From positions 55,706-119,705 of IMG/VR virus record IMGVR_UViG_3300008122_000001: a DNA stretch of 64,000 nt; one strand, 5' to 3'. The position numbers and the translations under genes were made by a program. The notes beneath the pieces are model-generated. The model ran no database searches. It saw nothing but the letters and a program-made list of their open reading frames with translations, and was not told the DNA's origin. Below, one piece after another: positions 31,335 through 50,766 of the stretch. Source of the DNA: a virus. Each line of letters opens with the position of its first letter. The first letter of the stretch is position 1.

Positions 31335-31440
31335 AATTTCCTCTCGAAAACTAGAATTTTTTTGAATTTCCTCTCGAAAACTAGAATTTTTTTGAATTTC
31401 CTCTCGAAAACTAGGATTTTTTTGAATTTTATTCGAGAGG
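31335..31440. repeat. Three 30-bp iterons plus inverted half copy
   Basis: Three head-to-tail copies of exactly 30 bp begin at 31335, 31365 and 31395. Each has the core CCTCTCGAAAACTAG followed by a T-run; the third differs by one base. At 31432-31440 TTCGAGAGG, the reverse complement of the core start, appears and is followed by ACTAGG. The array lies where transcription of the two genome halves diverges. Candidate replication origin or operator array. Confidence 0.8.
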
Positions 31441-37814: not shown

Positions 37815-38021
37815 ATGAAACCATCTATTATCAAAAAAGAGGATAAAGTCTTTCTAGCTGTTCCTCCTAGTATCATTATATTCTTATTTCGTCATAAGAA
37901 AATAGATAAAAAAGATATAGTAATACTTGAACATATCGAGTATCTAAATATGGAAAAGTTATCTGATCCTGATTTACAAGCACATTTACTTAGAAATCCT
38001 CTTATAACTAAAGTTGATTAA
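37815..38021 (+). CDS. Small protein (68 aa)
   Basis: Strong AAGGGGGG site before the ATG. Basic N-terminus, hydrophobic PPSIIIFLF. Its stop codon lies in the outer stem of the first intergenic structured element. Function unknown. Confidence 0.5.
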   Translation: MKPSIIKKEDKVFLAVPPSIIIFLFRHKKIDKKDIVILEHIEYLNMEKLSDPDLQAHLLRNPLITKVD

Positions 38022-38062
38022 TAATTTATACCATTATTTATATGATGGTATATGTAATTAAT
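38017..38062 (+). promoter_or_regulatory. Intergenic structured element 1
   Basis: Outer stem ATTAAT/ATTAAT; internal loop AATT opposite TGTA; inner stem TATACCAT/ATGGTATA; T38035-G38044 wobble, then AT/AT pairs and a short loop. Upstream stop codon inside the outer stem; next start 14 nt downstream. Confidence 0.8.
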
Positions 38063-38076
38063 TACAGGAGACACTA

Positions 38077-38472
38077 ATGTCTACATTAACAATTGAATTT
38101 CGAGATAATACAATAATTGCTTCTGAAGTTGTGTTTCTTGATGAGGAAATAGAACGTACAGTTGCTAATGCATTTCGTTTTGCATTAAAGGCTTATCTTT
38201 ATTATAAAGATTATCGTCTATTAGATTTCTCTGGGCATAGTGGTATTAATCATCAGACGGTATCTCGTCAACTTGGTGCTACTAAAAGTGTTACACAAGC
38301 TATAAACCATCAAATGGCATTAGATGTGTGTGCATACTATAGTGTTCAGTTTGAATATCTGTATGTAATAGCTGAACAGTTTGTAAAAAACCCTGAGTAT
38401 AACTCTATATCTTTTAAAGAAGATGGTACTGTTATATTTCTTAAGGCATTTAAATTACGCTTTGGAGATTAA
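38077..38472 (+). CDS. Possible HTH (repressor-like) protein
   Basis: 131 aa. Residues ~58-100 (GINHQTVSRQLGATKSVTQA, then MALDVCAYYSVQFEYLY) have the spacing of an XRE-type helix-turn-helix. If real it would bind DNA near its own operon. Moderate confidence only. Confidence 0.45.
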   Translation: MSTLTIEFRDNTIIASEVVFLDEEIERTVANAFRFALKAYLYYKDYRLLDFSGHSGINHQTVSRQLGATKSVTQAINHQMALDVCAYYSVQFEYLYVIAEQFVKNPEYNSISFKEDGTVIFLKAFKLRFGD

Positions 38473-38473
38473 T

Positions 38474-38761
38474 ATGGATAAGCAAGCTGCAATAGATTAT
38501 CTAAATACAGTATTACCTTTTGGTGATAATGGTGAAGATCATCAATGTGAGTTAGATGGTAACAATATTCCAAATATGAATAAGTTACTTGAAATACTCA
38601 AAGATGGTTTTGGTTATTTAGCAATTAGTGCTTATGATCCTAACCTAGGTGAAGGACTAATCTTTGTAAATATGTCTAGAACAGGTGACGAATATATTAC
38701 AGTAACTCCTTGTACGCTTAATTTTAAGCTTATGGAAGCTATATATTCAATTCTATCTTAG
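38474..38761 (+). CDS. Small acidic protein (95 aa)
   Basis: Start ATG 38474 with GGAG upstream, 1 nt after the preceding stop. Acidic, alpha/beta. No family recognised. Confidence 0.5.
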   Translation: MDKQAAIDYLNTVLPFGDNGEDHQCELDGNNIPNMNKLLEILKDGFGYLAISAYDPNLGEGLIFVNMSRTGDEYITVTPCTLNFKLMEAIYSILS

Positions 38762-38807
38762 ATTAACAATTTATACCTATTCAAGTTAGTAGGTATATGT
38801 GGTTAAT
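38762..38807 (+). promoter_or_regulatory. Intergenic structured element 2
   Basis: Outer stem ATTAAC/GTTAAT; loop AATT/TGTG; inner stem TATACCTA/TAGGTATA; T38780-G38789 wobble. Begins directly after the stop codon (TAG 38759-38761); next start 24 nt downstream. The two pairs above the wobble are weaker here than in the other copies. Confidence 0.8.
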
Positions 38808-38831
38808 TAGTTCAATAAAAGGAAAAGAAGT

Positions 38832-39833
38832 ATGTCTACTTCAATAACACTTCCACAAATAGCATTCACTGCTAATTATGAAGATGATATAAAAAATACT
38901 ATCTTCAATGCAATGGATTGTAAACTTCAGTCTAACCGTCGCTTTAACCATGAAACACGTTGGTTTAAAGATTTTCCTGAGTTTACTCTTAGTGCTAGTC
39001 CTTCTTGGTCTGATAAATCTAGAGTAGAAATCAGTCGTGATTTTGGTAAATATTTTGATATGAGTATTGAACGTATTAATGCGCTTTATAATCATATCAA
39101 AGGATTATTCCCTAATGGTACTTTCATGTGTCGTTATAATACAACATATGATATTACTATACATCAGATCTTTAGCTTAGGGTCTCATGTCTGGGCTAAT
39201 GCTGATCTTCAGTCTGTATTTTATTGTGAACCTCCTGTAATGCCTACAGAGTACAATGAATGGAAAGATTCTGTTACTAATCATGATTATACTTATATGA
39301 TGAGTGACTGTGCAGGAAGTCATCGTGCTGGACAAGCATCTGAAGAACGTATAAAAGAGCTTAAATCAAAGCTTGATCTTCGGATATGTACTCTTTGGTA
39401 TAATTATATTTTAGGTCGTATGCGTGTTCGTCCTCAAGATATGTCTTTTGGTGATCATTCTAAAGAGACTTGGAATACTCTTGAAGAAGCTTATAAAGAG
39501 TTTCGTATTATTCCTTCACATGCTCCGTATGTAGAACTTGGTACTACTCCAGTTAATACTCCTTGTCTTGGGTTCACTGCTCATGATAAGCGAAGTGGTT
39601 GGATGGAAGGTGATATGAAGTATGAAGGATATGTAAGTAATAATTACTTTGTATCTAAAGAAGAGTATGATAACTCTCAGATTCCAGTGATAGTGTTCCA
39701 TAATTATCCTGAAAAAGGTATATTGGTTTCAGAGAAATGTGAGACTAATAAGCATGATCTTTCTAAACTATTAGAACGTCATTCATGGCAGGATCACTAT
39801 TATACCTTAGAACCTGAAGGTAAATTAAAATAA
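38832..39833 (+). CDS. Unrecognised protein (333 aa)
   Basis: Soluble, aromatic-rich, with conserved-looking Trp/His/Cys residues (DCAGSHRAGQASEERIKEL; GDHSKETWNTLEEAYKEF). No catalytic motif identified. AAGGAAAAGAAG leader. Confidence 0.45.
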   Translation: MSTSITLPQIAFTANYEDDIKNTIFNAMDCKLQSNRRFNHETRWFKDFPEFTLSASPSWSDKSRVEISRDFGKYFDMSIERINALYNHIKGLFPNGTFMCRYNTTYDITIHQIFSLGSHVWANADLQSVFYCEPPVMPTEYNEWKDSVTNHDYTYMMSDCAGSHRAGQASEERIKELKSKLDLRICTLWYNYILGRMRVRPQDMSFGDHSKETWNTLEEAYKEFRIIPSHAPYVELGTTPVNTPCLGFTAHDKRSGWMEGDMKYEGYVSNNYFVSKEEYDNSQIPVIVFHNYPEKGILVSEKCETNKHDLSKLLERHSWQDHYYTLEPEGKLK

Positions 39834-39882
39834 TCAATTACATGCATTTGCTTTAATAGTAGATGTATGTGCTAGATTATTT
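39828..39882 (+). promoter_or_regulatory. Intergenic structured element 3
   Basis: Outer stem AAATAATC/GATTATTT; loop AATT/GCTA; inner stem ACATGCAT/ATGTATGT (one G-U); T39848-G39862 wobble. Stop codon TAA 39831-39833 inside the outer stem; next start 21 nt downstream. Confidence 0.8.
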
Positions 39883-39903
39883 ACTTATATAAGGATAACT
39901 ACT

Positions 39904-40284
39904 ATGTTAGTTCATCAATCTAATCGTTCTTGTAATTGTTGTGGTAATATGGTTGATCCCTCTATTATTGATATACCTATACAAGAAATCAAACTTGCTC
40001 CATTTGCAGTAAAATGTAAATGTGGTTACTTCTTTGAAGCTTATCACTATACAGTGTCATTTCGTAAATGGCGAGTAGCAAAAGGTGAATTAGGTTTTCG
40101 TTTAGATAATGCACAATCAGATTATCAACGAGAAAAAGAGTTTATTGAAACTCATTCTCCTATATCTGATTACATGCATATAGATCTAAAACGTAAAGAA
40201 GATTTAGTTCTTAAATTACATGCTGAATGGGATGAAATTTCTCTTAATCCTATTCCTGATCACTTATGGATAGATAAAGATTAA
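39904..40284 (+). CDS. Zinc-ribbon-like small protein
   Basis: 126 aa. CNCCGNM near residue 10 and CKCGYFFEA near residue 38 form a Cys-pair zinc site; the C-terminus is helical and charged. Could bind nucleic acid or a host protein. Confidence 0.5.
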   Translation: MLVHQSNRSCNCCGNMVDPSIIDIPIQEIKLAPFAVKCKCGYFFEAYHYTVSFRKWRVAKGELGFRLDNAQSDYQREKEFIETHSPISDYMHIDLKRKEDLVLKLHAEWDEISLNPIPDHLWIDKD

Positions 40285-40330
40285 CAATTTATAATACTTA
40301 TCTATATGGTAGGTATTATATGTGGTTAAT
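40280..40330 (+). promoter_or_regulatory. Intergenic structured element 4
   Basis: Outer stem ATTAAC/GTTAAT; loop AATT/TGTG; inner stem TATAATAC/GTATTATA; T40298-G40312 wobble and TTA/TAG top. Stop codon inside the outer stem; proposed next start 40346, 15 nt downstream. Confidence 0.85.
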
Positions 40331-40345
40331 TTAGAGTATAAACTT

Positions 40346-40600
40346 ATGAAAAAAGGTTTTAAACTTACAGATGGTAGTATATGGACTATCATTTCTTATG
40401 AGACTGTTGAAGGTTATGAAGATAAACTTGAATCTGAAATTCCATTAAGTGCTATTACTGTAGTTACTGGTGTTAAATGGGTTCAAAACCATACTCATAC
40501 CCATCCTTGTAATGCTTGTTTCTCTGATTGTAACTTTGAAGATTTCAATGTTAATGATCCTCGCATTATAGAATTAACTGACGATGTATTCTCATTATAA
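40346..40600 (+). CDS. Small His/Cys-containing protein (84 aa)
   Basis: A GTG at 40322 would lie in the structured element; the ATG at 40346 (MKKGFKLTDG) is 15 nt beyond it, as in the other copies, so I prefer it. Contains NHTHTHPCNACFSDC, a possible metal site. Confidence 0.5.
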   Translation: MKKGFKLTDGSIWTIISYETVEGYEDKLESEIPLSAITVVTGVKWVQNHTHTHPCNACFSDCNFEDFNVNDPRIIELTDDVFSL

Positions 40601-40610
40601 GGAATAAATA

Positions 40611-40808
40611 ATGAAATTAGATGGTTGGTCTGTTAATACACATAACCACTTCACAAAGAAAGGTTATACTGTAAGACCATATATAGATTCACCTACATTC
40701 TTTATTGAATTACCTAATGGTAAATATCATAAAAGAGATTGTAAAAGTCTACATGGTGCTCTTAAAGTTGTTGAACGTTTAATATTAAAAGAAGGAAAAG
40801 TTAAATAA
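40611..40808 (+). CDS. Small protein, GW..KKGYTV family (65 aa)
   Basis: KLDGWSVNTHNHFTKKGYTV and the C-terminal LHGALKVVERL match in layout the protein at 42026-42256 (LTGWTFEQL, KKDGYTINVKL, LEEALIAIG). Probable paralogs. AAGGAATAAATA leader; stop overlaps the next start. Confidence 0.5.
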   Translation: MKLDGWSVNTHNHFTKKGYTVRPYIDSPTFFIELPNGKYHKRDCKSLHGALKVVERLILKEGKVK

Positions 40809-41029
40809 TGGCTACTATTTATTTAATACAATGTTATCTTAAAAGTGATAATAGTTGGGTTGAAACATCCTCTGCTTGTACTTCTCGTAAAGATGCAGAA
40901 GAACGTTCTGATAACCTAAACAAAAACTTTGACCGACATTACCATCAAATAGAAACAATTACTCTTAATGGTGTAGTAAAGAGTCAAATGGAAAATAACT
41001 GTTATGTATTTGGAATAAACGAAAGTTAA
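40808..41029 (+). CDS. Small protein (73 aa)
   Basis: Starts on the last base of the preceding stop. ATIYLIQCYLKSDNSWVE then a basic helix (SRKDAEERSDNLNKNF). Distantly similar in layout to the 46-aa protein at 45310. Function unknown. Confidence 0.45.
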   Translation: MATIYLIQCYLKSDNSWVETSSACTSRKDAEERSDNLNKNFDRHYHQIETITLNGVVKSQMENNCYVFGINES

Positions 41030-41075
41030 TAAATTTATAAGACTTATACTAATAGGTCTTATATGTGTATTAACT
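41024..41075 (+). promoter_or_regulatory. Intergenic structured element 5
   Basis: Outer stem AGTTAATA/TATTAACT; loop AATT/TGTG; inner stem TATAAGAC/GTCTTATA; T41044-G41055 wobble with TTA/TAG top. Stop codon inside the outer stem; next start 33 nt downstream. Confidence 0.85.
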
Positions 41076-41108
41076 GTAACACTCACTTTAAAACAAGGAA
41101 ATATCCTC

Positions 41109-41960
41109 ATGTTAAAATTATCAATTCCTGCTTCAATTCTTACTGCTGTATCTACATCTATAGGTTCTTTATTAACTGGTGTTATAACAACAGAAAAGAA
41201 TAACTTAAAACTTAATGCCATTCTTAAAACACGTAATAAGAGCATGGCTAAAGCTTTTGGTGTTCCTGTAGAAGAATATGTAAAGAATAAAGAAGAAAAA
41301 CGAGCTAAATCTTTAGCTAATATTCTTTCTAAACTTACATTATCTGAAATTAAACCTATTACTACAAAAATAGGATCTGTTAGTGTAGTAGGTGAAACAG
41401 TAGAAATAGCAATTAATGATCAATATATTGTTGATTGTATTGAAGCTTCTACTCGTGTAGGTCTTCGTATGCTTAAACCTTTATCTGATATAGCTGTTAT
41501 TGTAGAAGAAGAAGGTACTAAAACTGAAGCCATGCTTAAAACATGGGAAGAAGATAAAGTAGATGTTCCTCCTACTGAGCCAAAAGATCCTGAACCAGAA
41601 ACAGAAGTTAAAATTGTAGATGCTCTTGACCTGCCTTCTGAAACAACAACTGAGCTACTAAAAGAAGAACAACCTAAAGATAATAATATTTTTAATGGTT
41701 GGTCTATTATCTCAAGTACATTTAGTTCTAAACCTTTCTTTACTGATGAAAAAAAAGAACAGTGGATTGATTTGTATTATCTTACTTGTACAAATAAAGA
41801 AGGTAATTCTCTTCAAGTAGGTCAGACAGTAAGTAAAGCAATTCTTTCATCTAAACTTAGTATTAAAGATACTGCTGTAGAACAAGAACTACCTGAATCT
41901 TTAGTAGTAGCTGTATATGAATATTATGGATTTAAATCTTTAGCTACTAAACCTGAATAA
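41109..41960 (+). CDS. Unrecognised protein with acidic linker (283 aa)
   Basis: A hydrophobic N-terminus (IPASILTAVSTSIGSLLTGV) could be a membrane anchor. A basic helical region follows, then a Pro/Glu linker near residues 155-175 and a C-terminal alpha/beta domain. Function unknown. Confidence 0.45.
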   Translation: MLKLSIPASILTAVSTSIGSLLTGVITTEKNNLKLNAILKTRNKSMAKAFGVPVEEYVKNKEEKRAKSLANILSKLTLSEIKPITTKIGSVSVVGETVEIAINDQYIVDCIEASTRVGLRMLKPLSDIAVIVEEEGTKTEAMLKTWEEDKVDVPPTEPKDPEPETEVKIVDALDLPSETTTELLKEEQPKDNNIFNGWSIISSTFSSKPFFTDEKKEQWIDLYYLTCTNKEGNSLQVGQTVSKAILSSKLSIKDTAVEQELPESLVVAVYEYYGFKSLATKPE

Positions 41961-42010
41961 TTAACAATTACATATACTTCTTTAATAGAGGTATATGTGC
42001 TGGTTAATTA
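41958..42010 (+). promoter_or_regulatory. Intergenic structured element 6
   Basis: Outer stem TAATTAAC/GTTAATTA; loop AATT/GCTG; inner stem ACATATAC/GTATATGT; T41978-G41990 wobble with TTC/GAG top. Stop codon at the foot of the outer stem; next start 15 nt downstream. Confidence 0.85.
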
Positions 42011-42025
42011 AGTAGAGTAAATAAT

Positions 42026-42256
42026 ATGTTATTTGGATCTAACAAATCTTATAACTTAACAGGTTGGACATTTGAACAACTTAATCCTTATTCTTCTTTA
42101 TATAAAAAAGATGGATATACTATCAATGTAAAACTTGTTGATTCACCTGATGTAGGTATCTGTAATGTTGTAGATATTTACAAAGATGATCAATTTCTTA
42201 CTTCTAAAAATAATTTAGAAGAAGCATTAATAGCAATAGGAGAAAATCCACTATGA
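42026..42256 (+). CDS. Small protein, paralog of 40611-40808
   Basis: 76 aa. LTGWTFEQLNPYSSLYKKDG and a C-terminal NLEEALIAIG helix match the layout of the gene at 40611. Overlaps the next gene by 4 nt. Function unknown. Confidence 0.5.
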   Translation: MLFGSNKSYNLTGWTFEQLNPYSSLYKKDGYTINVKLVDSPDVGICNVVDIYKDDQFLTSKNNLEEALIAIGENPL

Positions 42257-42678
42257 AATATGTTATTGCTTTAGCTTTACCTGGTGGTCTACTTGTAGAG
42301 CTTCGTGGTCATCATAATTCTTATGAAGAAACCCTTCAATACTTACATAAACATTATAAATCATTTAAAGATTCAGATGTTTATATTATTCACTATGATG
42401 GTGATCATGCTGATTATGGTTCTCCTTATAAGTTTAATATGAGTACTTATTACTCATGTGAAGATGGTGTTTACTATGAAGAACATTATGATGAAATCGA
42501 TGCTGGTTTAGGTGTAAAAGAAATTGGTTCATCACTTCTAGTTAATAATGATCTACTTCCTCAAGCTTTAAAAGATAATGGTGAATTAGTAGAGAAAGCT
42601 ATTGAAGATTGGATTAATTCCCATCTTACTAATCCTAAAGTAAACCCTGCAACTATTAAGCCTAACTGGTTAATATAG
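42253..42678 (+). CDS. Acidic protein (141 aa)
   Basis: Opens with a strand (YVIALALPGGLLVELRG) and is rich in His/Tyr/Asp (VYIIHYDGDHADYG; CEDGVYYEEHYDEIDAG). Could bind a metal; no family recognised. Confidence 0.45.
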   Translation: MKYVIALALPGGLLVELRGHHNSYEETLQYLHKHYKSFKDSDVYIIHYDGDHADYGSPYKFNMSTYYSCEDGVYYEEHYDEIDAGLGVKEIGSSLLVNNDLLPQALKDNGELVEKAIEDWINSHLTNPKVNPATIKPNWLI

Positions 42679-42727
42679 TTAAACAATTACATACATTTCT
42701 AATTGAGATGTATGTGTTGGTTTAATT
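42677..42727 (+). promoter_or_regulatory. Intergenic structured element 7
   Basis: Outer stem AGTTAAAC/GTTTAATT (one G-U); loop AATT/GTTG; inner stem ACATACAT/ATGTATGT; T42697-G42707 wobble with TTC/GAG top. Stop codon overlaps the outer stem; next start 16 nt downstream. Confidence 0.85.
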
Positions 42728-42743
42728 GTAAAAGGTATGTATT

Positions 42744-43073
42744 ATGTCTTTAGAATATCATATATTAATAGGTAATAATCATAGTGTAGATCTTTGTCTT
42801 CATGGTCAATCTGTACTCTTTAATACAGATACTAATGAATATAAATTTCAAATAAATAATGAAGAACCTTTCTATACTGAATCTGTAGAAGAAATGCGTA
42901 AAAACAATTATATTGAAGTTATTCATACTCTAGATGAACACTACTATTATGAAAAATGTGAACAAATTTATAACTTTGAAGAATCATACAACTTCTGTTA
43001 TCTAAATCCTCAATATAGTTATTTTGTACGCAACATTTGTAATATTAGAGCACATAAAGATTTAAATTTTTAA
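42744..43073 (+). CDS. Unrecognised small protein (109 aa)
   Basis: Acidic, Tyr/Asn/Glu-rich, alpha/beta. No motif recognised. Follows structured element 7. Confidence 0.4.
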   Translation: MSLEYHILIGNNHSVDLCLHGQSVLFNTDTNEYKFQINNEEPFYTESVEEMRKNNYIEVIHTLDEHYYYEKCEQIYNFEESYNFCYLNPQYSYFVRNICNIRAHKDLNF

Positions 43074-43083
43074 GGAGACTGTA

Positions 43084-43470
43084 ATGTCTAAAGAACAGTA
43101 TAAATATGAATGGCAATTAATATCTCTCATGACAGATAATTATGGTATCTCTTTAGATGAGTTTACTAAATTAGTACATGAACAATTTGAAGCTGTACCT
43201 TATCATGATATTACTAGTACACATGAACGTATTAGTGCTAAGAAATTATATCATATCATAGAAACTGATAACTTTAATGGAGATTATCCAAATGAACATT
43301 TTGTTAGTTTCATTGATCATGAAGGTAAGTCTCGTCCTTTAGTCTTTGATAAAAAAGAAGATGCTCAAGTAATTGCTAAAGCATTTAATCAAATCAAATA
43401 CGGTGGAGCTAATCGTTACTTCATGGAAGTAGATAAAGCTCGTAAATTATTTGGTCCATTTGAACCTTAA
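43084..43470 (+). CDS. Small protein with EDAQVIAKAFNQIK motif (128 aa)
   Basis: The C-terminal half (RPLVFDKKEDAQVIAKAFNQ) has the same pattern as the end of the protein at 58299-58616 (YRFVEREEAYVIAKAQNQIK). That pattern occurs in a widespread phage family of unknown function. AAGGAG site. Confidence 0.5.
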   Translation: MSKEQYKYEWQLISLMTDNYGISLDEFTKLVHEQFEAVPYHDITSTHERISAKKLYHIIETDNFNGDYPNEHFVSFIDHEGKSRPLVFDKKEDAQVIAKAFNQIKYGGANRYFMEVDKARKLFGPFEP

Positions 43471-43484
43471 TTAGGAATATAACT

Positions 43485-43799
43485 ATGAAAAATCAAGATG
43501 TAGTAACACTAGATATAACTCGTGAACAACAAGCAGAAAGCTTTGCAAGAGGAGGAGTTAAAGCTATGGGTGTTTGTATAGCTCTTAGTTCAAATGAACA
43601 TCCTCTTGTACGTTTAGGTGGTCTTACATTATCTGTATTTCCTAAAAGTTCAAAAGCTTTAGTACCATTAGCTATATCTTTAGGTGGTTGGATACTTGCT
43701 AAAGATAAGAAAAAAGCATTCATTCAACGTGCTTTCTGCTTTGGTAGTACTATAACAGTAGCAGGTCTTATTAGTTATGAACCATCAAAAAAAATATAA
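43485..43799 (+). CDS. Small membrane-type protein (104 aa)
   Basis: Hydrophobic segments near 25-45, 55-70 (ALVPLAISLGGWILA) and 80-95 (AFCFGSTITVAGLI). Likely inner-membrane. Overlaps the next gene by 23 nt. Confidence 0.5.
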   Translation: MKNQDVVTLDITREQQAESFARGGVKAMGVCIALSSNEHPLVRLGGLTLSVFPKSSKALVPLAISLGGWILAKDKKKAFIQRAFCFGSTITVAGLISYEPSKKI

Positions 43800-44022
43800 A
43801 TTAGAAGTAACTGTACATCAGTTTACTGAAAATGGTCGTAGTATACAGACTAAATATATTTCAAATTTAAATCAAAAAAGTATTCCTGAAATTCATAAAG
43901 AAGGTAATTATCTTCACATTGGTTTTCCTAATCATGATACTGAAGATTACTTTAAAGATTTTATTAAATTTGAAATAAAACAAACTAACTACAAACTTCA
44001 TATGACTCACTGGGAAATGTAA
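43777..44022 (+). CDS. Unrecognised small protein (81 aa)
   Basis: Starts inside the end of the preceding membrane-protein gene. Beta-rich (KYKLEVTVHQFTENGRS) with a charged centre. Function unknown. Confidence 0.4.
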   Translation: MNHQKKYKLEVTVHQFTENGRSIQTKYISNLNQKSIPEIHKEGNYLHIGFPNHDTEDYFKDFIKFEIKQTNYKLHMTHWEM

Positions 44023-44023
44023 A

Positions 44024-44230
44024 ATGGCAAATAAATCTGCTACTCCGTTAATACGTCTTGAATCTCAGCATACAATCAATGGTATTGCAGTTGGTACTAG
44101 TATTGAAAGTGCTGAACGTATTAAAAATGCTTCTTTTGCTTTACATGCATTAATTGAAACTCATGATCTTAGTGAACATGAAGCTGGATTAATGTTAAAA
44201 GTTGTATTTCCTCAATTAAAAGGTATTTAA
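44024..44230 (+). CDS. Unrecognised small protein (68 aa)
   Basis: Starts 2 nt after the preceding stop; helical C-terminal half (AERIKNASFALHALIETHDL). Function unknown. Confidence 0.45.
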   Translation: MANKSATPLIRLESQHTINGIAVGTSIESAERIKNASFALHALIETHDLSEHEAGLMLKVVFPQLKGI

Positions 44231-44479
44231 ATGAAAGAGTACTTATTACTAGGTATATTATCATTACCTAATACTGGAACTGTTATTCAAAAGGTTAGTC
44301 ATAAATTAGATAACCGTGAAGAATATAATACTCAAGATTTCAATTTGAAAGAATGGGAACAATATGTTCTTGATTTCATGGAAATCACAAGTATTGATAA
44401 TGAAGATTTAGTATTAACTATTATTATTGTTAATCTTAAAAATACTTCAGACTTCAAAACTTATACAAAAAGTAAATAG
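44231..44479 (+). CDS. Unrecognised small protein (82 aa)
   Basis: Its ATG follows the preceding stop without a gap. Acidic, alpha/beta, with EYLLLGILSLPNTGTVIQK at the front. Its stop codon forms the foot of structured element 8. Confidence 0.45.
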   Translation: MKEYLLLGILSLPNTGTVIQKVSHKLDNREEYNTQDFNLKEWEQYVLDFMEITSIDNEDLVLTIIIVNLKNTSDFKTYTKSK

Positions 44480-44533
44480 ATAATAAATTACATATACTTA
44501 TTTTAATTATAGGTATATGTTGTGTATTATTTA
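44477..44533 (+). promoter_or_regulatory. Intergenic structured element 8
   Basis: Outer stem TAGATAATA/TATTATTTA (one G-U); loop AATT/TGTG; inner stem ACATATAC/GTATATGT; T44498-G44512 wobble with TTA/TAG top. Stop codon is the first three bases; next start 20 nt downstream. Confidence 0.85.
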
Positions 44534-44553
44534 AAGCCACAAGGAATACTATT

Positions 44554-45288
44554 ATGTCTTATATTTATAATGATTCAATACTTATACCTCAAAAAACATA
44601 TAAGGTACAAGAAGTATTAAAAGCTGGTAAAGAAGCTAAACGATTTAAAAATTGTAGTGCATTTCTTACTCAAATCATTAATGATCAAGCAAGTGTACGT
44701 ATTACTAATAACATGCATTCAGTTCCTGTTCGTTGTTTAATCAATGTAAAAGGATATACTGCTAAACCTGTACGTGCTGAAAATGCTCATGGTTTTGCTG
44801 TAGTTATGCAAAATAGTATTGGTATTCCAGTAGGTCGTGCTTATATTGGTCCTACTCGTGTAACATCAGATAGAGCTTACTTTGATATCAATGGTTCAGA
44901 AATTTCTATTCCTTTAAACCTTACTTGTTGCTTAGTTAAAATTGAAGAAAAAGTAACAAAAGAAGCTAAGAAAGTAGAAAAAGAAACTGGTATTCCTCAT
45001 AAACTTGTTGATTTATTAGATGATAAATCAGCTCGTAAAGAACCAGAAGAACCTTTACCAATATTTGTTAAGAAATTATTTCCTAATCTTATTGTAGAAG
45101 AAGTAAGAGAAAGAATTCGAAATGAACATCGTCCTGTATATGATATGGATGGTAATGATCACAACACAATTGCAGAAGCTGAAAGAGCCAATGTATTAAT
45201 TAAACAACGTATTCTAACACAACATGTAAAAATCATGGTAGATATGGAATATGATCGTCAAGAAGCTGAAGCCCTTAAAAAGGGCTAA
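44554..45288 (+). CDS. Unrecognised protein (244 aa)
   Basis: N-terminal half beta-rich and basic; C-terminal half charged and helical. DMDGNDHNTIAEAERANVLI near residue 205. The end of the gene and the following bases form two GC-rich hairpins. Confidence 0.45.
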   Translation: MSYIYNDSILIPQKTYKVQEVLKAGKEAKRFKNCSAFLTQIINDQASVRITNNMHSVPVRCLINVKGYTAKPVRAENAHGFAVVMQNSIGIPVGRAYIGPTRVTSDRAYFDINGSEISIPLNLTCCLVKIEEKVTKEAKKVEKETGIPHKLVDLLDDKSARKEPEEPLPIFVKKLFPNLIVEEVRERIRNEHRPVYDMDGNDHNTIAEAERANVLIKQRILTQHVKIMVDMEYDRQEAEALKKG

Positions 45289-45299
45289 GCCTTCGGCTT
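45271..45299 (+). terminator. Two adjacent GC-rich hairpins, one with a UUCG loop
   Basis: GCCCTT/AAGGGC with loop AAA, then AAGC-CTTCGG-CTT, a canonical cUUCGg tetraloop. There is no T-run, so it may stabilise or process mRNA ends. Followed by the CAAATGGTTTATG motif seen in similar form elsewhere. Confidence 0.55.
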
Positions 45300-45309
45300 C
45301 AAATGGTTT

Positions 45310-45450
45310 ATGAATATGAATTCTTATCAAGTAACATTCTATGATCTAACAACCTGGATCACGGAGGGTAGTAGTTCTCTCCATGCTAGGAGATTAGCAA
45401 GAGAATATTACCCAACAAGATTCGTAACACATGTAATTCAAATTAAATAG
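45310..45450 (+). CDS. Very small protein (46 aa)
   Basis: MNMNSYQVTFYDLTTWITEG then a basic helix (LHARRLAREYYPTRF) and VTHVIQIK. The amino-acid pattern looks like a real mini-protein similar in layout to the one at 40808. There is no strong ribosome site, unlike most neighbours. Confidence 0.5.
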   Translation: MNMNSYQVTFYDLTTWITEGSSSLHARRLAREYYPTRFVTHVIQIK

Positions 45451-45461
45451 GAGTATACCTC

Positions 45462-45860
45462 ATGCAAGGTATTAATCAAGTTGTTCTAATGGGCACATTA
45501 GGTAATAAACCAGAACTTAAAACTTTCCCTAACGGTGGTAAATCAACACGTATTTCTTTAGCCACTTCTATGTCTTGGATTGATTCAGACTCTGGTGAAC
45601 GTAAAGAAAAAACACAATGGCACTCTGTAGTACTGCGTAATCGTCAAGCTGAAATTGCAGTACAATACTTAGATAAAGGTGATCGTGTTGGTGTTGTTGG
45701 TCGTTTAGAAACACGGAGTTATGTAAAAGATAATATTACTTTTTATGTAACTGAAGTTATTAGTACTAATTTACAAATGATCAGTACTAAAAATAAATCA
45801 CCTAACATTCCTGCTGAAGTATCTATTCCACCTGATATGGATGATGACTTACCATTCTGA
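45462..45860 (+). CDS. ssb: Single-stranded DNA-binding protein
   Basis: 132 aa bacterial-type SSB. The OB fold is clear: GINQVVLMGTLGNKPELK, STRISLATS, TQWHSVVLRNRQAEIAVQYL and RVGVVGRLETRSY. The end (MDDDLPF) is the acidic tip that recruits partner proteins. It binds ssDNA during replication and recombination. AGGAG site. Confidence 0.95.
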   Translation: MQGINQVVLMGTLGNKPELKTFPNGGKSTRISLATSMSWIDSDSGERKEKTQWHSVVLRNRQAEIAVQYLDKGDRVGVVGRLETRSYVKDNITFYVTEVISTNLQMISTKNKSPNIPAEVSIPPDMDDDLPF

Positions 45861-45862
45861 TC

Positions 45863-45924
45863 TAGATAATAGATTTATAATACTTATTATAGAAATATAG
45901 TAGGTATTATATGTATATTATTTA
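45863..45924 (+). promoter_or_regulatory. Intergenic structured element 9
   Basis: Outer stem TAGATAATA/TATTATTTA (one G-U); loop GATT/TGTA, where A-G of the usual AATT/TGTG is reversed to G-A; inner stem TATAATAC/GTATTATA; T45884-G45903 wobble with TTA/TAG top. Begins 2 nt after the ssb stop; next start 16 nt downstream. Confidence 0.85.
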
Positions 45925-45940
45925 ACATAGGAGTAATAAA

Positions 45941-46213
45941 ATGAATAATATAGAATTTAATACTCGTTTGATTAATATCTTAAAAATGAGAAATAAACTA
46001 AAACGTAGTGAATTGGTAGATTTATTAAGACAGTTTTGGAAACATAACAAACAACAGTTACAAACAATTTATCATTATCATTGTTATCAATTAGTTGTTA
46101 AAGTTCTTAATCATTTTGATAATATTATCTTACAAAGCAACAATCGTTACTACTATGTTTATAAAAATGTATTAGTAGATTTTGTAGAAAAAAGTACTCA
46201 AAACCCTATATAG
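45941..46213 (+). CDS. Small basic protein (90 aa)
   Basis: Basic and helical (LKMRNKLKRSELVDLLRQFW) with His/Gln/Tyr-rich middle. Might bind nucleic acid. Located just after ssb. Function unknown. Confidence 0.45.
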   Translation: MNNIEFNTRLINILKMRNKLKRSELVDLLRQFWKHNKQQLQTIYHYHCYQLVVKVLNHFDNIILQSNNRYYYVYKNVLVDFVEKSTQNPI

Positions 46214-46457
46214 GTATTGATTAATTTCAAAATGTAATGTTAATTATGTAGAGATATATATAAATATAAGTATACATTTATAAACTTAAATGTACATTAC
46301 ATATTAACTATCTATTTGTTATATAATGGTGACTCCGTGCCACAAGAACTGAAACTAGTTACGTTACTATTCCTCACTATTGTCTCTATAGTGTCTCTTT
46401 CGACTTACTGTAATACTTTATACCAATAAGCCTAATAATGGCTACAAGGAGCTTACA
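46214..46457 (+). other. Gene-free leader region with nested palindromes
   Basis: ATGTAATGT (46232-46240) pairs with ACATTACAT (46294-46302) and encloses TACATTTA/TAAATGTA (46273-46280/46287-46294). Then comes GTGACTCCGTGCC and a pyrimidine-rich stretch up to an AAGGAG site. It holds no gene that I can support and may be a promoter and leader region. Confidence 0.45.
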
Positions 46458-46559
46458 ATGCATTCTACAACCAATCTAGTACCAGCTGTAGTACACAATT
46501 TAAATGAAGTTTATTTATTTATGTACGGTCAATTACAAACTTCAGATTTCCTTTCTTAA
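46458..46559 (+). CDS. Very small protein (33 aa)
   Basis: ATG 46458 follows AAGGAGCTTACA, a strong ribosome site. Sequence begins MHSTTNLVPAVVHNLNEV. Its stop lies 3 nt before structured element 10, the same spacing as known genes, which supports translation. Confidence 0.55.
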   Translation: MHSTTNLVPAVVHNLNEVYLFMYGQLQTSDFLS

Positions 46560-46562
46560 TCT

Positions 46563-46610
46563 GTTATTCAATTTATATCACTTCTTATGAGGTGATATAT
46601 GTAGACTAAC
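46563..46610 (+). promoter_or_regulatory. Intergenic structured element 10
   Basis: Outer stem GTTATTC/GACTAAC with one T/C mismatch; loop AATT/TGTA; inner stem TATATCAC/GTGATATA; T46582-G46591 wobble with TTC/GAG top. Next start 16 nt downstream. Confidence 0.8.
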
Positions 46611-46626
46611 ACTTAGGTATACTATC

Positions 46627-47028
46627 ATGTATCGCTTATATAAAACTTACATCAATTCAGATGGCTCTTATTTCGATATGGAAGCCGTTTACTTTAATTG
46701 CATACAAGAGCACAGTAAACTTCTTAATCGCTCTCTAAAGACCTGTGAAGCTCATGATGGTGTACTTTGTAAAGTAGCTTACACCCTTGAACCTTTATAT
46801 CTTTCTGAAGCTTATCAACGATCAGCAGTGTATCATATTAGTAATGCTAATAATATTAATACTCTTACTGAGTTTAAAACATGCCTTAAAGAATATTTTC
46901 CTGAATATATCAAATATATTTCTAACGAAAATATTATTAAAGAATTAAAACATATGGCTTCTTTTGTACTAAGTGGTGAAAGAATCTATCCTGATATTAA
47001 ACGTATCATTGAAGTAAAAGGTAAATAA
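46627..47028 (+). CDS. Unrecognised protein (133 aa)
   Basis: Helical, Tyr/Cys-containing (EAVYFNCIQEHSKLLNRSLK). No family recognised. Confidence 0.45.
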   Translation: MYRLYKTYINSDGSYFDMEAVYFNCIQEHSKLLNRSLKTCEAHDGVLCKVAYTLEPLYLSEAYQRSAVYHISNANNINTLTEFKTCLKEYFPEYIKYISNENIIKELKHMASFVLSGERIYPDIKRIIEVKGK

Positions 47029-47030
47029 TT

Positions 47031-47123
47031 ATGTATGAGATCTATTTATACTTAGTTGGATTACACCCTTCTATGTTTCTTCCTAAAAACTTAATTAAAT
47101 TAATAAAGGTAGAACCACAATGA
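47031..47123 (+). CDS. Possible very small protein (30 aa)
   Basis: MYEIYLYLVGLHPSMFLPKN, then a basic end. Its stop overlaps the next start as ATGA, which suggests coupling. No clear ribosome site. Confidence 0.35.
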   Translation: MYEIYLYLVGLHPSMFLPKNLIKLIKVEPQ

Positions 47124-47491
47124 CTCAAGAAAAGAATAAGTTTAATCAACTTATGAATACTCATCTTGATGCTCTTTATGCATTAAATCAATATCAAGAA
47201 CAATGTGTAAATGTAAGTTTAAATGGTTCTGTAGATTGTATGGAACTCCGTGCATTACACAATGTAATTGCTCAACATTTTCCTGAATTAATTTCCTCTC
47301 GTCGCATCAGCGATGGGGGAAGTAATAAAATGACATTAATTGCTAAAGTAGAAGAAATTAAACCTGCTTTAGAATTAATCCTTTCTGAATATCCTCGTAT
47401 CTCTTCTAGTATTGTTGGTATCTCACTACAAAAAATGATTAATGAATTAGAACCACAATTAAACTTTAAATTATTCCCTAACTATCGTTAA
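47120..47491 (+). CDS. Unrecognised protein (123 aa)
   Basis: Helical with Leu/His/Asn content (DALYALNQYQEQCVNV; MELRALHNVIAQHFPELI). No motif recognised. Confidence 0.45.
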   Translation: MTQEKNKFNQLMNTHLDALYALNQYQEQCVNVSLNGSVDCMELRALHNVIAQHFPELISSRRISDGGSNKMTLIAKVEEIKPALELILSEYPRISSSIVGISLQKMINELEPQLNFKLFPNYR

Positions 47492-47503
47492 AAGGATTGT
47501 ACT

Positions 47504-48073
47504 ATGACTACTCAACAACCTACTGCATATTCTTTATTTCTTACAGCTTGGGAAAATGCTCCTAAGATTCCTTTCAAAATGGAATGGAAAAATGGTACTG
47601 GTTATCTAGATCATGCAACTAATGATGATGAATTAGATATTCCTTATAATGAATTCCGTGCAACTATTGATGATTATGGACGTTATGTATTACTTAAAGG
47701 TTTAGGTCTTAAATGTAATATTGTAGTCTTTGAACGTCATGTTCATGGTATGAGTGAAATCTTAGTAAATAATCAACCATCTCGTCGTCATACTAAAAAA
47801 GTTGATTTAACTAACTGGGTAGACATTAAAGATGGTTCTCTTGATTTACGTAATATGGAAATCTTCCTGAATTTACGTGATAATTTATTAATCATTAATG
47901 ATGCTGGTATTGAATACATTAATAAAAATGTAGACTCTGCTTTAGTATCTACTGGTGATTTTGAAATCTTAATCAATGATTGCTATACAGGTGTTAAACA
48001 ACAAGACCTTCAAGCTTTTGGTATTGATATCAACACACTATATGTCTATGGTTATATTCAGGATTTAGTATAA
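47504..48073 (+). CDS. Unrecognised protein (189 aa)
   Basis: Alpha/beta soluble protein; N-terminal KIPFKMEWKNGTGYLDHATN, later RRHTKKVDLTNWVDIKDGSL. Starts after AAAGGA; its stop overlaps the next start. Function unknown. Confidence 0.45.
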   Translation: MTTQQPTAYSLFLTAWENAPKIPFKMEWKNGTGYLDHATNDDELDIPYNEFRATIDDYGRYVLLKGLGLKCNIVVFERHVHGMSEILVNNQPSRRHTKKVDLTNWVDIKDGSLDLRNMEIFLNLRDNLLIINDAGIEYINKNVDSALVSTGDFEILINDCYTGVKQQDLQAFGIDINTLYVYGYIQDLV

Positions 48074-48330
48074 TGGAAAACCCTATTACTGTACTATTAT
48101 TCTTTCTTGGATTAGAACAAGGTGATCAAAACTTTGATTCTAAACTAGTATATAAATTAGGTATGCCTATTCCTAATGCTAAATTATACTTAGATATTGC
48201 TAATTGGGATAAGAATTGGTGTCAAACTTTAAGTGAGCGTTTATGCTTTCCTAAAGACTATTGGTATAATTTATTATGTCAATATAATGCATCTAAAGTA
48301 GATAACATTATCGAAACAGAATTTAAATAA
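48073..48330 (+). CDS. Unrecognised small protein (85 aa)
   Basis: Starts on the last base of the preceding stop. Trp/Tyr-rich (IANWDKNWCQTLSERLCF). Its stop lies in structured element 11. Confidence 0.45.
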   Translation: MENPITVLLFFLGLEQGDQNFDSKLVYKLGMPIPNAKLYLDIANWDKNWCQTLSERLCFPKDYWYNLLCQYNASKVDNIIETEFK

Positions 48331-48375
48331 TAAATTTATAGGACTTACTTAGGTAGGTTCTATATGTGTATTATT
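48326..48375 (+). promoter_or_regulatory. Intergenic structured element 11
   Basis: Outer stem AATAATA/TATTATT; loop AATT/TGTG; inner stem TATAGGAC/GTTCTATA (one G-U); T48345-G48356 wobble with TTA/TAG top. Stop codon inside the outer stem; next start (48392) 16 nt downstream. Confidence 0.85.
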
Positions 48376-48391
48376 ACAAAGAGATATTAAT

Positions 48392-48565
48392 ATGTGGGAA
48401 AAGATTAAACCTAACTTTTCAAATGTAAAAGAAGGTAAAGAATACAAAACTTGTATTAATGATGAACAAGGGTTACGTAATATTGCAACACTAAGAAAAC
48501 AAGGTAACTTGTGGTTTTCTGGTAACAGTTACGTTTACTATACTCCTACTCACATTTGGGTATAA
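48392..48565 (+). CDS. Small protein (57 aa)
   Basis: MWEKIKPNFSNVKEGKEYK opens it and YVYYTPTHIWV ends it. It begins 16 nt after structured element 11 with a weak GAGATAT leader. Probably a real small beta protein, function unknown. Confidence 0.55.
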   Translation: MWEKIKPNFSNVKEGKEYKTCINDEQGLRNIATLRKQGNLWFSGNSYVYYTPTHIWV

Positions 48566-48566
48566 T

Positions 48567-48740
48567 ATGAAAATAGTTATTGTACATCCTTCACTTATTT
48601 CTATATTTAAACAATGCTCTGTTGCTTCATCATTAGATAATTGTAGTAATAAAGAATATCAAAAGTTTACTAATCATGGTCGTAAATTACCTAATCATAG
48701 TAAACATAAAGCTAATATTAAAAAAGGAAACTTTCCTTAA
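48567..48740 (+). CDS. Small basic protein (57 aa)
   Basis: MKIVIVHPSLISIFKQCS then a Lys/His/Asn-rich basic tail. Starts 1 nt after the preceding stop; its own stop lies in structured element 12. Confidence 0.5.
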   Translation: MKIVIVHPSLISIFKQCSVASSLDNCSNKEYQKFTNHGRKLPNHSKHKANIKKGNFP

Positions 48741-48790
48741 TTAATAAATTTATAGGAATTATTATTAGTTCCTATATGTGTATTAATTAA
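48737..48790 (+). promoter_or_regulatory. Intergenic structured element 12
   Basis: Outer stem TTAATTAATA/TATTAATTAA (10 bp); loop AATT/TGTG; inner stem TATAGGAA/TTCCTATA; T48759-G48768 wobble with TTA/TAG top. Stop codon inside the outer stem; HNH gene starts 13 nt downstream. Confidence 0.85.
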
Positions 48791-48803
48791 TATCGAGGTT
48801 ATT

Positions 48804-49550
48804 ATGTTTCTTGTACCTATTCCTAGAGCTATAGCTAAAGAACGTGGATTAAAACATTACGATTCAACATCATTTTGTAAATTTGGAAATATCAGTAAAC
48901 GCCTTGTAAGTAATTTTAACTGTCTTTGTAATTCTTGCAAAAAAGAAAAGTATAATAAAGTAAAGGATTATAAAAAAACTCCCAAAGCTAAAGAACTTAG
49001 AAAAATAACTAATCAAAATTATTACAAAGAGAATAAAGAAATTATTCTTAGTAATAATAAAATATGGAGAGATGGAGTTGGATCTGAGATTAAAAAGTTA
49101 GCTGATAAAAGATGGGCTACAGAAAATAGAGACAAAGTTAATTTATCTCAAAGAAAACATTACCGTAATAATCTTCAAAAACAACGAGCTAGAAGAAGAC
49201 TTTGGAACATGAAGAATCGCCCTAAAAAAGCTATGTATACTTTTGAAAGACGACTTCTTACTTCATATGCATATCTTAAAAGTGAGTTAACTGACTTTGT
49301 ATTTGAACAATCACAAGAATTAGCCCAACAACGTGAAACACTTTTAGGTATTAAAATTCATGTTGATCATATGATACCTCTTAAAGCTAAAAATACTTGT
49401 GGATTACATGTTTGGAATAATTTTCAATGCTTACCTAGTGTGATGAATAGTAGTAAAGGTAATAAACTTATCTATACCAATCCTCATGAATGGTTATATG
49501 ATATTCCTAAATTCTTTAAAGTAGTATATCAACAGGAGATTGCTGCATGA
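48804..49550 (+). CDS. HNH endonuclease (free-standing)
   Basis: 248 aa. N-terminal CLCNSCKK zinc-like pair, a long basic helical middle for DNA contact, and a C-terminal HNH motif: HVDHMIPLKAKNTCGLHVWN, then NFQCLPSVMNSSKGN. It may be a homing-type nuclease that spreads itself, or a nuclease used on host DNA. Stop overlaps the next start (ATGA). Confidence 0.8.
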   Translation: MFLVPIPRAIAKERGLKHYDSTSFCKFGNISKRLVSNFNCLCNSCKKEKYNKVKDYKKTPKAKELRKITNQNYYKENKEIILSNNKIWRDGVGSEIKKLADKRWATENRDKVNLSQRKHYRNNLQKQRARRRLWNMKNRPKKAMYTFERRLLTSYAYLKSELTDFVFEQSQELAQQRETLLGIKIHVDHMIPLKAKNTCGLHVWNNFQCLPSVMNSSKGNKLIYTNPHEWLYDIPKFFKVVYQQEIAA

Positions 49551-49762
49551 AAATGATTAAGTTATTAGTACTATTAGATGGTACTATGGTTAAAGTTTCA
49601 TCTAAAATGGAAGTTGGTACTCTTATGAATACTCATAAAGGTGTCGATCAAATTTGTGGTGCTATTTATTCTGTATCATATGATATTTATAAAAAACGTC
49701 ATAATAAAGTTCTTAAAAAACTTTTTGTTGATAGTATTTATAACCCACAAATTAAATTTTAA
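49547..49762 (+). CDS. Unrecognised small protein (71 aa)
   Basis: Coupled by ATGA to the HNH gene. Beta start (MIKLLVLLDGTMVKV) and basic C-terminus. Function unknown. Confidence 0.45.
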   Translation: MKMIKLLVLLDGTMVKVSSKMEVGTLMNTHKGVDQICGAIYSVSYDIYKKRHNKVLKKLFVDSIYNPQIKF

Positions 49763-49814
49763 TAAATCAATAGGATTAAGTACTCCACATATTTGATCCT
49801 ATTCATTTGTTAAA
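49758..49814 (+). promoter_or_regulatory. Intergenic structured element 13 (divergent loop)
   Basis: Outer stem TTTAATA/TGTTAAA (one T-G); internal loop AATC/CATT instead of the usual sequence; inner stem AATAGGAT/ATCCTATT; T49777-G49795 wobble with TAA/TTG top. Stop codon inside the outer stem; next start 26 nt downstream. Confidence 0.65.
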
Positions 49815-49840
49815 CTTTGTTAAACTGAGAGACTGTTATT

Positions 49841-50317
49841 GTGTCTAAATTAATCTTAACCGTTGGGATCTCGAATTGTGGTAAATCAGCTTGGACTGAA
49901 CAATTTATCAAAGAACATCCTAATACTGTTGAATTAAATCGTGATTATGTACGCTTTAATATTATTAATCCTAAAGCAAACGATTGGTCTGATTATTCTA
50001 TTAGTGAAACTAAAGAGAATCGTGTCAGTTGTATTCTTATGGAAAAATATAAAGAAGCTATTGAACAAGGTAAAGATGTAATTATCTCTGATACTAATTT
50101 ATCTTACTTTGGTCGTATTAAATGGTTAGAGATTGCAAGACAAAATGGACAAAAAGTTGAATTTGTAGTATTTCATAATAAATTTATTGATACATTTTAT
50201 GGAAACAGTTCTAACTTTATGTCCTTACCTGATTTTGTACTTACTAGTCAATACAAACGTTTTACTCAATTCCTAGATGAAGTTCCTGTTCCTGGAGTTA
50301 AGTATACCTTTATCTAG
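49841..50317 (+). CDS. Polynucleotide 5'-kinase-like P-loop protein
   Basis: 158 aa. Walker A as TVGISNCGKSAWTEQFI, then VELNRDYVRFNI and DVIISDTNLSYFGRIKWLEI. These match the kinase domain of T4 polynucleotide kinase (GCPGSGKS, NRDDYR, VIISDTNL) in order and spacing. It would transfer phosphate to 5'-OH ends of nucleic acid, as in tRNA or DNA repair. The phosphatase domain is absent. GTG start. Confidence 0.85.
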   Translation: MSKLILTVGISNCGKSAWTEQFIKEHPNTVELNRDYVRFNIINPKANDWSDYSISETKENRVSCILMEKYKEAIEQGKDVIISDTNLSYFGRIKWLEIARQNGQKVEFVVFHNKFIDTFYGNSSNFMSLPDFVLTSQYKRFTQFLDEVPVPGVKYTFI

Positions 50318-50329
50318 AGGATAATTAAT

Positions 50330-50539
50330 ATGAATGTATTAAATTTAATATGCTACATTAATATACAAATAACGAAATGTCATAATCATGATATCAATCT
50401 TGATCGGTTTAAACCTATTCTTAAAGATATTAAGATAAAAGATTTAATTAATTTATTAGAACATGAGGGATACTTTGGATCTTTTCGTGTAACTAATAAA
50501 TCTCTTTATTATATCCATAAAGGAACAGTAAATGTTTAA
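50330..50539 (+). CDS. Unrecognised small protein (69 aa)
   Basis: Mixed hydrophobic and basic; LNLICYINIQITKCHNHD then FKPILKDIKIKDLINLLE. Starts after GAGGAT; overlaps the next gene by 8 nt. Confidence 0.45.
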   Translation: MNVLNLICYINIQITKCHNHDINLDRFKPILKDIKIKDLINLLEHEGYFGSFRVTNKSLYYIHKGTVNV

Positions 50540-50720
50540 ACAAATATTTGAAACAATCTTCCCATTACATATGCTTATAGCTTTAGTAACATGTTTCTAT
50601 ATTAATATGTATATATTTAAATCAGAGCATATAGTACAAAGTGTTGTAGGTTCTTTTATTATTTATTTAATATTAACTTTCATTATGTTATATATTTATT
50701 TTAAATATATAAAAAGTTAA
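50532..50720 (+). CDS. Small membrane protein (62 aa)
   Basis: Two hydrophobic segments (FPLHMLIALVTCFYINMYIF and VGSFIIYLILTFIMLYIYF) with a Lys end. Likely in the inner membrane. Its stop lies in structured element 14. Confidence 0.55.
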   Translation: MFKQIFETIFPLHMLIALVTCFYINMYIFKSEHIVQSVVGSFIIYLILTFIMLYIYFKYIKS

Positions 50721-50766
50721 TAAATTTATATCATTCTTAAATTAGGATGATATATGTATATTAACT
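50715..50766 (+). promoter_or_regulatory. Intergenic structured element 14
   Basis: Outer stem AGTTAATA/TATTAACT; loop AATT/TGTA; inner stem TATATCAT/ATGATATA; T50735-G50746 wobble with TCT/AGG top. Stop codon inside the outer stem; next start (GTG 50782) 15 nt downstream. Confidence 0.85.

What the first reader, a model, noticed from the sequence alone, without database searches (positions are those of the whole stretch)
38017..50766. Family of 14 covarying intergenic structured elements
Seen: 14 elements (at 38017, 38762, 39828, 40280, 41024, 41958, 42677, 44477, 45863, 46563, 48326, 48737, 49758, 50715) share one architecture: a 6-10 bp outer stem, a 4x4 internal loop, an 8-bp inner stem, a wobble, two more pairs and a short loop. 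Primary sequence of the stems differs widely (for example GTCTTATA, GTATATGT, ATGGTATA) yet each is matched by its partner strand. That is compensatory change, so structure is selected. Known parallel: T7 has RNase III sites with internal loops between genes. Inference: these are phage mRNA processing, stabilising or control signals. I know of no described family with this design.
Basis: partly seen in the sequence, partly recalled or inferred. Interest (0 to 1): 0.92.

Follow-up and report, generated by a model that had tools for sequence, protein, structure and literature searches.

The report
RNase III-type phage mRNA hairpins
Thirteen short RNA hairpins of one strict design sit between early genes of this large phage, and recur in related giant phages and at the start of prophage early operons; they look like built-in cutting sites for the host enzyme RNase III, as in phage T7, but form a separate, undescribed family.

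Summary
The finding is real. 13 of the 14 hairpins fit one strict design (0.01 expected in shuffled sequence). The one at 49758 does not, and two more lie outside the window. Stems covary throughout (98.6% of cells paired, 16 of 19 pairs changed on both sides). The "4x4 loop" is a conserved purine·purine mismatch, a pair, a U·G/C-G pair and a U·U mismatch. It is followed by exactly 8 pairs and a near-invariant U·G. All 15 lie on the transcribed strand, overlap or abut the upstream stop codon and usually end about 15 nt before the next start. A covariance model found the family in two diverged giant phages and a prophage. Pattern scans added Moraxella prophages, where the hairpin sits in the left early leader. 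Best explanation (0.55): RNase III processing signals like T7's. The U·G and next pair match the published RNase III distal box (UU/AG, or UC/GG as in T7 R0.3/R1). The proximal-box register then fits best where predicted, and the cut falls in the internal loop. No phage RNase III was found, so the host enzyme is the candidate. Rivals: a put-like antiterminator, or a stabiliser/translational signal. No experiment was done. Not in Rfam.

The parts
38015..38064 (+). element 1; predicted cut after 38054
38760..38809 (+). element 2; predicted cut after 38799
39828..39882 (+). element 3 (ACAT subtype); predicted cut after 39872
40278..40332 (+). element 4; predicted cut after 40322
41024..41075 (+). 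element 5; predicted cut after 41065
41958..42010 (+). element 6 (ACAT subtype); predicted cut after 42000
42677..42727 (+). element 7 (ACAT subtype); predicted cut after 42717
44478..44532 (+). element 8 (ACAT subtype); predicted cut after 44522
45864..45923 (+). element 9 (G·A instead of A·G mismatch), directly after the ssb gene; predicted cut after 45913
46562..46611 (+). element 10 (one mismatch in outer stem); predicted cut after 46601
48325..48376 (+). element 11; predicted cut after 48366
48739..48788 (+). element 12; predicted cut after 48778
50715..50766 (+). element 13; predicted cut after 50756
49758..49814 (+). claimed 14th element: a long stop-overlapping hairpin, NOT a member (no motif, not found by the model)

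Best explanation
Each element is transcribed as part of a polycistronic early mRNA and folds into an imperfect hairpin of about 22 pairs, two turns of A-form helix. Host RNase III binds it, reading the U·G plus U-A (or C-G) pairs near the tip as its distal box and the first four inner pairs as its proximal box. It cuts in the mismatched internal loop, mainly on the 3' strand between the bases of pairs 11 and 10. The upstream message keeps a protective 3' hairpin. The downstream gene gets a short leader, commonly about 25 nt, with a free Shine-Dalgarno sequence. In prophages the same signal trims the leader of the left early operon. Shown: the structure, its covariation, its placement, its presence in diverged phages, the box match and register, and no detectable RNase III or dsRBD gene in four carrier contigs. 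Inferred: binding by RNase III, cutting, and the effect on mRNA stability and translation.
For: (1) Covariation and strict size: 39 aligned elements keep 95.8% pairing against 63% shuffled, with 8 inner pairs in every one. (2) A published description puts the E. coli RNase III distal box UU/AG at 10-11 and the proximal box CWUW/WAWG at 2-5 from the cleavage centre (PMC5141509). Here pairs 21-22 are UU/AG in 20 of 39 and UC/GG in 11 of 39. T7 R1.1 has UU/AG and T7 R0.3 and R1 have UC/GG at the matching place. In the register set by that box, CWUW scores best of 12 tested registers exactly where predicted (2.85 of 4), and the cleavage centre falls between pairs 11 and 12, inside the internal loop. 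(3) RNase III sites in B. subtilis and E. coli are reported to be enriched for U-G wobbles in the distal box (PMC11780869). (4) Placement: 15 of 15 copies in this phage are co-directional and start within 6 nt of the upstream stop codon; 8 of 15 end 15 nt before the next start codon, range 12-33. T7 R1.1 is likewise an intergenic early-region site with a 4/5 internal loop (PMC6121014). (5) No RNase III or dsRBD gene was found in four carrier contigs, with positive controls working.
Against: No cleavage data. The conserved mismatches are stricter than RNase III is known to need: position 9/40 is A·G, A·A or G·A and never G·G, which suggests a more specific reader. E. coli RNase III sites in general match the consensus poorly (PMC5371410), so a box match is suggestive only. 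The proximal box is A/U-rich in A/U-rich genomes, so its fit is weak support. The nearest isolate, ME3, lacks the elements.
Confidence: 0.55

Rival explanations
1. A put-like antitermination RNA: the nascent hairpin binds RNA polymerase (alone or with Nus factors) and lets it read through terminators in early operons.
For: In Moraxella-type prophages the element lies just downstream of the left early promoter next to the CI-like repressor, where HK022 putL lies (PMC9378689). The first gene differs between prophages, so the role is operon-wide. Several leaders carry a boxA-like TTTAACAA before it. In G037 a terminator-like hairpin follows it. The strict mismatches suit a specific reader.
Against: HK022 put RNA is two stem-loops of about 70 nt; the model does not match HK022. 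No copy was found in the right early operons of G037 or the Mcat loci examined, whereas put has left and right sites. Thirteen copies in 13 kb is more than a long-acting antiterminator needs. No strict intrinsic terminators were found in the window. It does not explain the tight placement before start codons.
Confidence: 0.17
2. A stabilising or insulating hairpin, or a translational signal bound by another host factor next to the ribosome site, with no cutting.
For: The element fills the gap between the upstream stop codon and the next Shine-Dalgarno and in Mcat phages ends just upstream of AGGAG. The covarying G·A/A·G mismatch suggests a specific binding surface.
Against: A plain stabilising hairpin would not need fixed mismatches, a fixed 8-bp spacing and a U·G. 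First genes differ, so it is not gene-specific control. It does not predict the distal-box match.
Confidence: 0.2
3. A DNA-level element: a palindromic operator, a promoter, or a small mobile repeat.
For: Many dispersed copies with an inverted-repeat form.
Against: Arms vary freely while pairing is kept; U·G is near-invariant though it is a mismatch in a DNA palindrome; all copies are co-directional with transcription; promoter-like sites in the region are at chance level.
Confidence: 0.03

Closest known systems
T7 early-region RNase III processing signals (R0.3, R0.5, R1, R1.1, R1.3)
   Same: Hairpins between early genes, two stems around a small internal loop, U·G/U-A or U·G/C-G distal box near the tip, short spacing to the next start codon.
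   Different: T7 has an asymmetric 4/5 loop and its own stem sequence (AAGG/CCUU); here the loop is near-symmetric with fixed mismatches and stems vary. The covariance model gives no T7 hit, so there is no evidence of common descent.
HK022 put antiterminator RNAs
   Same: Same place as putL: promoter-proximal in the left early leader of temperate phages.
   Different: Two stem-loops, about 70 nt, left and right copies; no model match.
Lambda N-leader RNase III site (from memory, a lead only)
   Same: Hairpin in the left early leader shortly before the first start codon.
   Different: Not compared by sequence here; in lambda it is tied to gene N, while here the first genes differ.
T4-like PeSL promoter/stem-loop motifs (from memory; not found in the paper library)
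   Same: Repeated intergenic stem-loops in variable early regions of myoviruses.
   Different: PeSLs combine an early promoter with a terminator-like stem-loop; no T-run or promoter excess here.

Membership tests
RNase III processing signal (T7-type, functional class) | Imperfect duplex of about two turns with internal loop or bulge | tested here: met
   8+4+8+2 pairs
RNase III processing signal (T7-type, functional class) | Distal box UU/AG (or T7 variant UC/GG) 10-11 from cleavage centre | tested here: met
   31 of 39 elements; box from PMC5141509; T7 comparison
RNase III processing signal (T7-type, functional class) | Proximal box CWUW/WAWG at 2-5 | tested here: inconclusive
   best of 12 registers but 2.85 of 4 on average in A/U-rich sequence
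RNase III processing signal (T7-type, functional class) | Cut by RNase III, rnc-dependent ends in vivo | not testable with these tools
   needs cleavage assay or infection RNA-seq
T7 R-site sequence family (by descent) | Recognisable homology to T7 sites | tested here: not met
   no R2 hit in T7 at E<=10
HK022 put RNA | Two stem-loops, about 70 nt, sequence-related to putL/putR | tested here: not met
   single hairpin; no R2 hit in HK022
HK022 put RNA | Promoter-proximal in both left and right early operons | tested here: inconclusive
   left leader yes; none found in the right operons examined
HK022 put RNA | Antitermination through RNAP beta' zinc-binding domain | not testable with these tools
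   needs transcription assay
Any Rfam family | Match at gathering score | tested here: not met
   (window); only a weak sub-threshold Trp_leader hit elsewhere in L247
Intrinsic terminator | G+C-rich stem followed by a U run | tested here: not met
   strict scan of the window finds none; the loose scan flags two elements at chance level

The most novel reading that the evidence does not exclude
The elements are a new class of cis-acting RNA read by a specific host factor other than RNase III, for example a nut/put-like antitermination signal acting on Moraxellaceae RNA polymerase, used once in prophage early leaders and multiplied to over a dozen copies in giant phages.
Probability: 0.25. Interest if true: 0.85.

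Novelty: new variant of a known kind. Interest (0 to 1): 0.66.

Why it matters
It is a compact, highly covarying RNA family not in Rfam that marks early transcripts in two very different kinds of phage, giant myoviruses and small prophages, with no protein match found between the two carriers compared. That points to a host-encoded reader and to a common rule for early phage mRNAs. It gives a precise cut prediction for every copy, so in vitro RNase III digestion could test it quickly, and it would extend the T7 paradigm of RNase III-processed early mRNA to giant phages and Moraxella prophages.

Tried and rejected
Exact pattern scan AATTTATA..TATATGTG in IMG/VR: mostly chance hits. ME3, 30 terminase-related contigs, Moorella and Bacillus phage relatives: no elements. 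A sample of 369 gammaproteobacterial genomes: none, but weak filters and no positive control. Genome-contig scan: 15 hits, none with fully complementary arms. HK022 put as homologue: rejected by structure and model. Intrinsic terminators and promoters in the array: chance level. Phage-encoded RNase III or dsRBD protein: none. Shared phage protein between prophage G037 and the giant phage: none found. G003 hits 188584 and 214815 and G036 hit 103525 are perfect or off-register hairpins and were left out of the alignments. The G036 21457 hit has the wrong strand and loop and was judged chance. The element at 49758 was rejected as a member.

Full report
WHAT IS THERE. The window lies in a 183,705-bp IMG/VR phage contig. 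Its structural genes resemble those of Acinetobacter phage ME3 (terminase 54% identity; most structural proteins). A strict structural scan finds 13 hairpins on the + strand of the window, none on the - strand, and 0.01 per shuffled window. These are 13 of the 14 claimed elements; 49758 lacks the motif. A covariance model (R1) built from 15 copies finds in this genome only those 15, two of them outside the window.

ANATOMY. Outer stem of 8 pairs (some longer); then A·G, A·A or G·A; A-U (G-C in some prophages); U·G or C-G; U·U; then exactly 8 pairs; then U·G; usually at least one more pair; then a loop of variable size. In the ACAT subtype the last two internal-loop positions are usually swapped (mismatch, then U·G). 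In 15 copies 98.6% of cells pair, 16 of 19 pairs have changes on both sides, and shuffled or slid controls fall far below. In 39 copies from all carriers, 20 counted stem pairs reach 95.8% against 63% shuffled. The U of the wobble is invariant and its partner is G in 36 and A in 3. The 9/40 mismatch is A·G 27, A·A 7, G·A 5, G·G 0 (Fisher p=0.0014, copies not independent). Fixed mismatches inside freely varying stems argue for reading as RNA and against a DNA palindrome or arm-copying by quasi-palindrome repair.

PLACEMENT. In this phage all 15 copies are co-directional with the genes. The upstream stop codon lies between 6 nt before and 4 nt after the element start in all 15. The next start codon follows the element end by 12-33 nt, 15 nt in 8 of 15. 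The genes beside the elements mostly have no detected homologues in the other giant phages.

RELATIVES. G003 (229.7 kb; terminase 38% identical) and G036 (242.6 kb; terminase about 50% identical) carry about seven and six copies respectively, again co-directional and mostly next to stop codons. In G000, G003 and G036 the main array follows a related gene of about 1,150-1,210 codons. ME3 has none. A 35-kb prophage-like contig, G037, carries one copy (49 bits with R1). It lies downstream of a promoter beside a CI-like repressor and upstream of a Sak4 recombination operon, the layout of a lambda-type left early operon. Relaxed scans then found the hairpin in the same leader of Moraxella catarrhalis phages Mcat18, Mcat23 and Mcat32 and in IMG/VR relatives L248 and L250. 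Background for that relaxed scan is about one per 300 kb per strand. A last pattern scan added ten more contigs, four of them reached independently by model R2. One 37-kb phage contig, L265, has two intergenic copies over stop codons, like the giant phages. L248 and G037 share a nearly identical leader in which the element sequence is replaced while the layout is kept. The first gene differs between prophages, so the signal serves the transcript rather than one gene. No protein match was found between G037 and G000, which favours a host-encoded reader. Hosts are inferred, not known: Acinetobacter-like for the giant phages and Moraxella-like for the prophages.

HOW IT MOST LIKELY WORKS. The published description of E. 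coli RNase III substrates puts a distal box UU/AG at 10-11 and a proximal box CWUW/WAWG at 2-5 from the cleavage centre (PMC5141509), and U-G wobbles are enriched in the distal box (PMC11780869). Here pairs 21-22 are UU/AG in 20 of 39 and UC/GG in 11 of 39. T7 R1.1 (UU/AG) and T7 R0.3 and R1 (UC/GG) have the same two forms at the corresponding place, found by folding T7. Fixing that register, the CWUW score on the 3' strand is highest of 12 registers exactly at pairs 16-13. The cleavage centre falls between pairs 11 and 12, inside the internal loop. By analogy with the T7 cut (UUUAU|GAU; T7 cut coordinates from memory), the 3'-strand cut is predicted between the bases of pairs 11 and 10, commonly leaving a leader of about 25 nt before the start codon. 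This also explains why the element usually sits immediately upstream of start codons in both kinds of phage. No RNase III or dsRBD gene was found in G000, G003, G036 or G037, with the search positive in control genomes, so the host enzyme is the candidate. Everything about binding, cutting and consequences is inferred.

RIVALS. The prophage position equals that of HK022 putL (PMC9378689), and some leaders have a boxA-like TTTAACAA, so a put- or nut-like antiterminator is possible. Against it: one hairpin rather than two, no model match to HK022, no right-operon copy found, many copies per array, and no strict terminators in the window. A stabiliser or translational signal without cutting is also possible but does not predict the box register. 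A DNA-level role is unlikely.

NOVELTY. Rfam has no gathering-level match to the window, and the 2015 Mcat prophage paper text has no mention of a leader, hairpin, stem-loop or terminator (PMC4619438). As a kind of thing it works like T7's RNase III sites; as a family it is new, with no detected homology to T7's.

Noticed in passing
window 49758-49814: Long hairpin overlapping a stop codon with a single C·C mismatch, not in the family; may be an independent processing or stabilising hairpin.
   Followed up: partly
L131:12206-13426 (contig 131706-132926): Adenylosuccinate synthetase-like gene (Pfam 7e-38); phage homologues can be PurZ of 2-aminoadenine genomes, not tested.
   Followed up: no
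L133:8704-10038 (contig 167804-169138): Protein with a weak TROVE (Ro60-type) domain match just above the Pfam cut-off.
   Followed up: no
L140:9152-11434 and L136:1001-3178: Terminase large subunits of ME3 and G003 contain an insertion at the GRR/GKT motif that resembles an intein; the window's terminase lacks it.
   Followed up: no
window 31335-31429: Tandem array of 3.2 copies of a 30-bp unit, 98% identical, between the divergent structural and early gene blocks.
   Followed up: no
L244 about 5325-5380 and other Mcat-type leaders: A second stem-loop (ATCTGAC...GTCAGAT) precedes the element; in Mcat17 (L243) only this one remains, as if the two had recombined at a shared GTGTCAGATTAA.
   Followed up: partly
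L250, L244, L245, L263 leaders: boxA-like TTTAACAA between the promoter and the element, a possible Nus-factor site.
   Followed up: no
G003:214815 (-) and G036:103525 (-): Perfectly paired hairpins of similar tip sequence lacking the internal loop, also upstream of genes.
   Followed up: no
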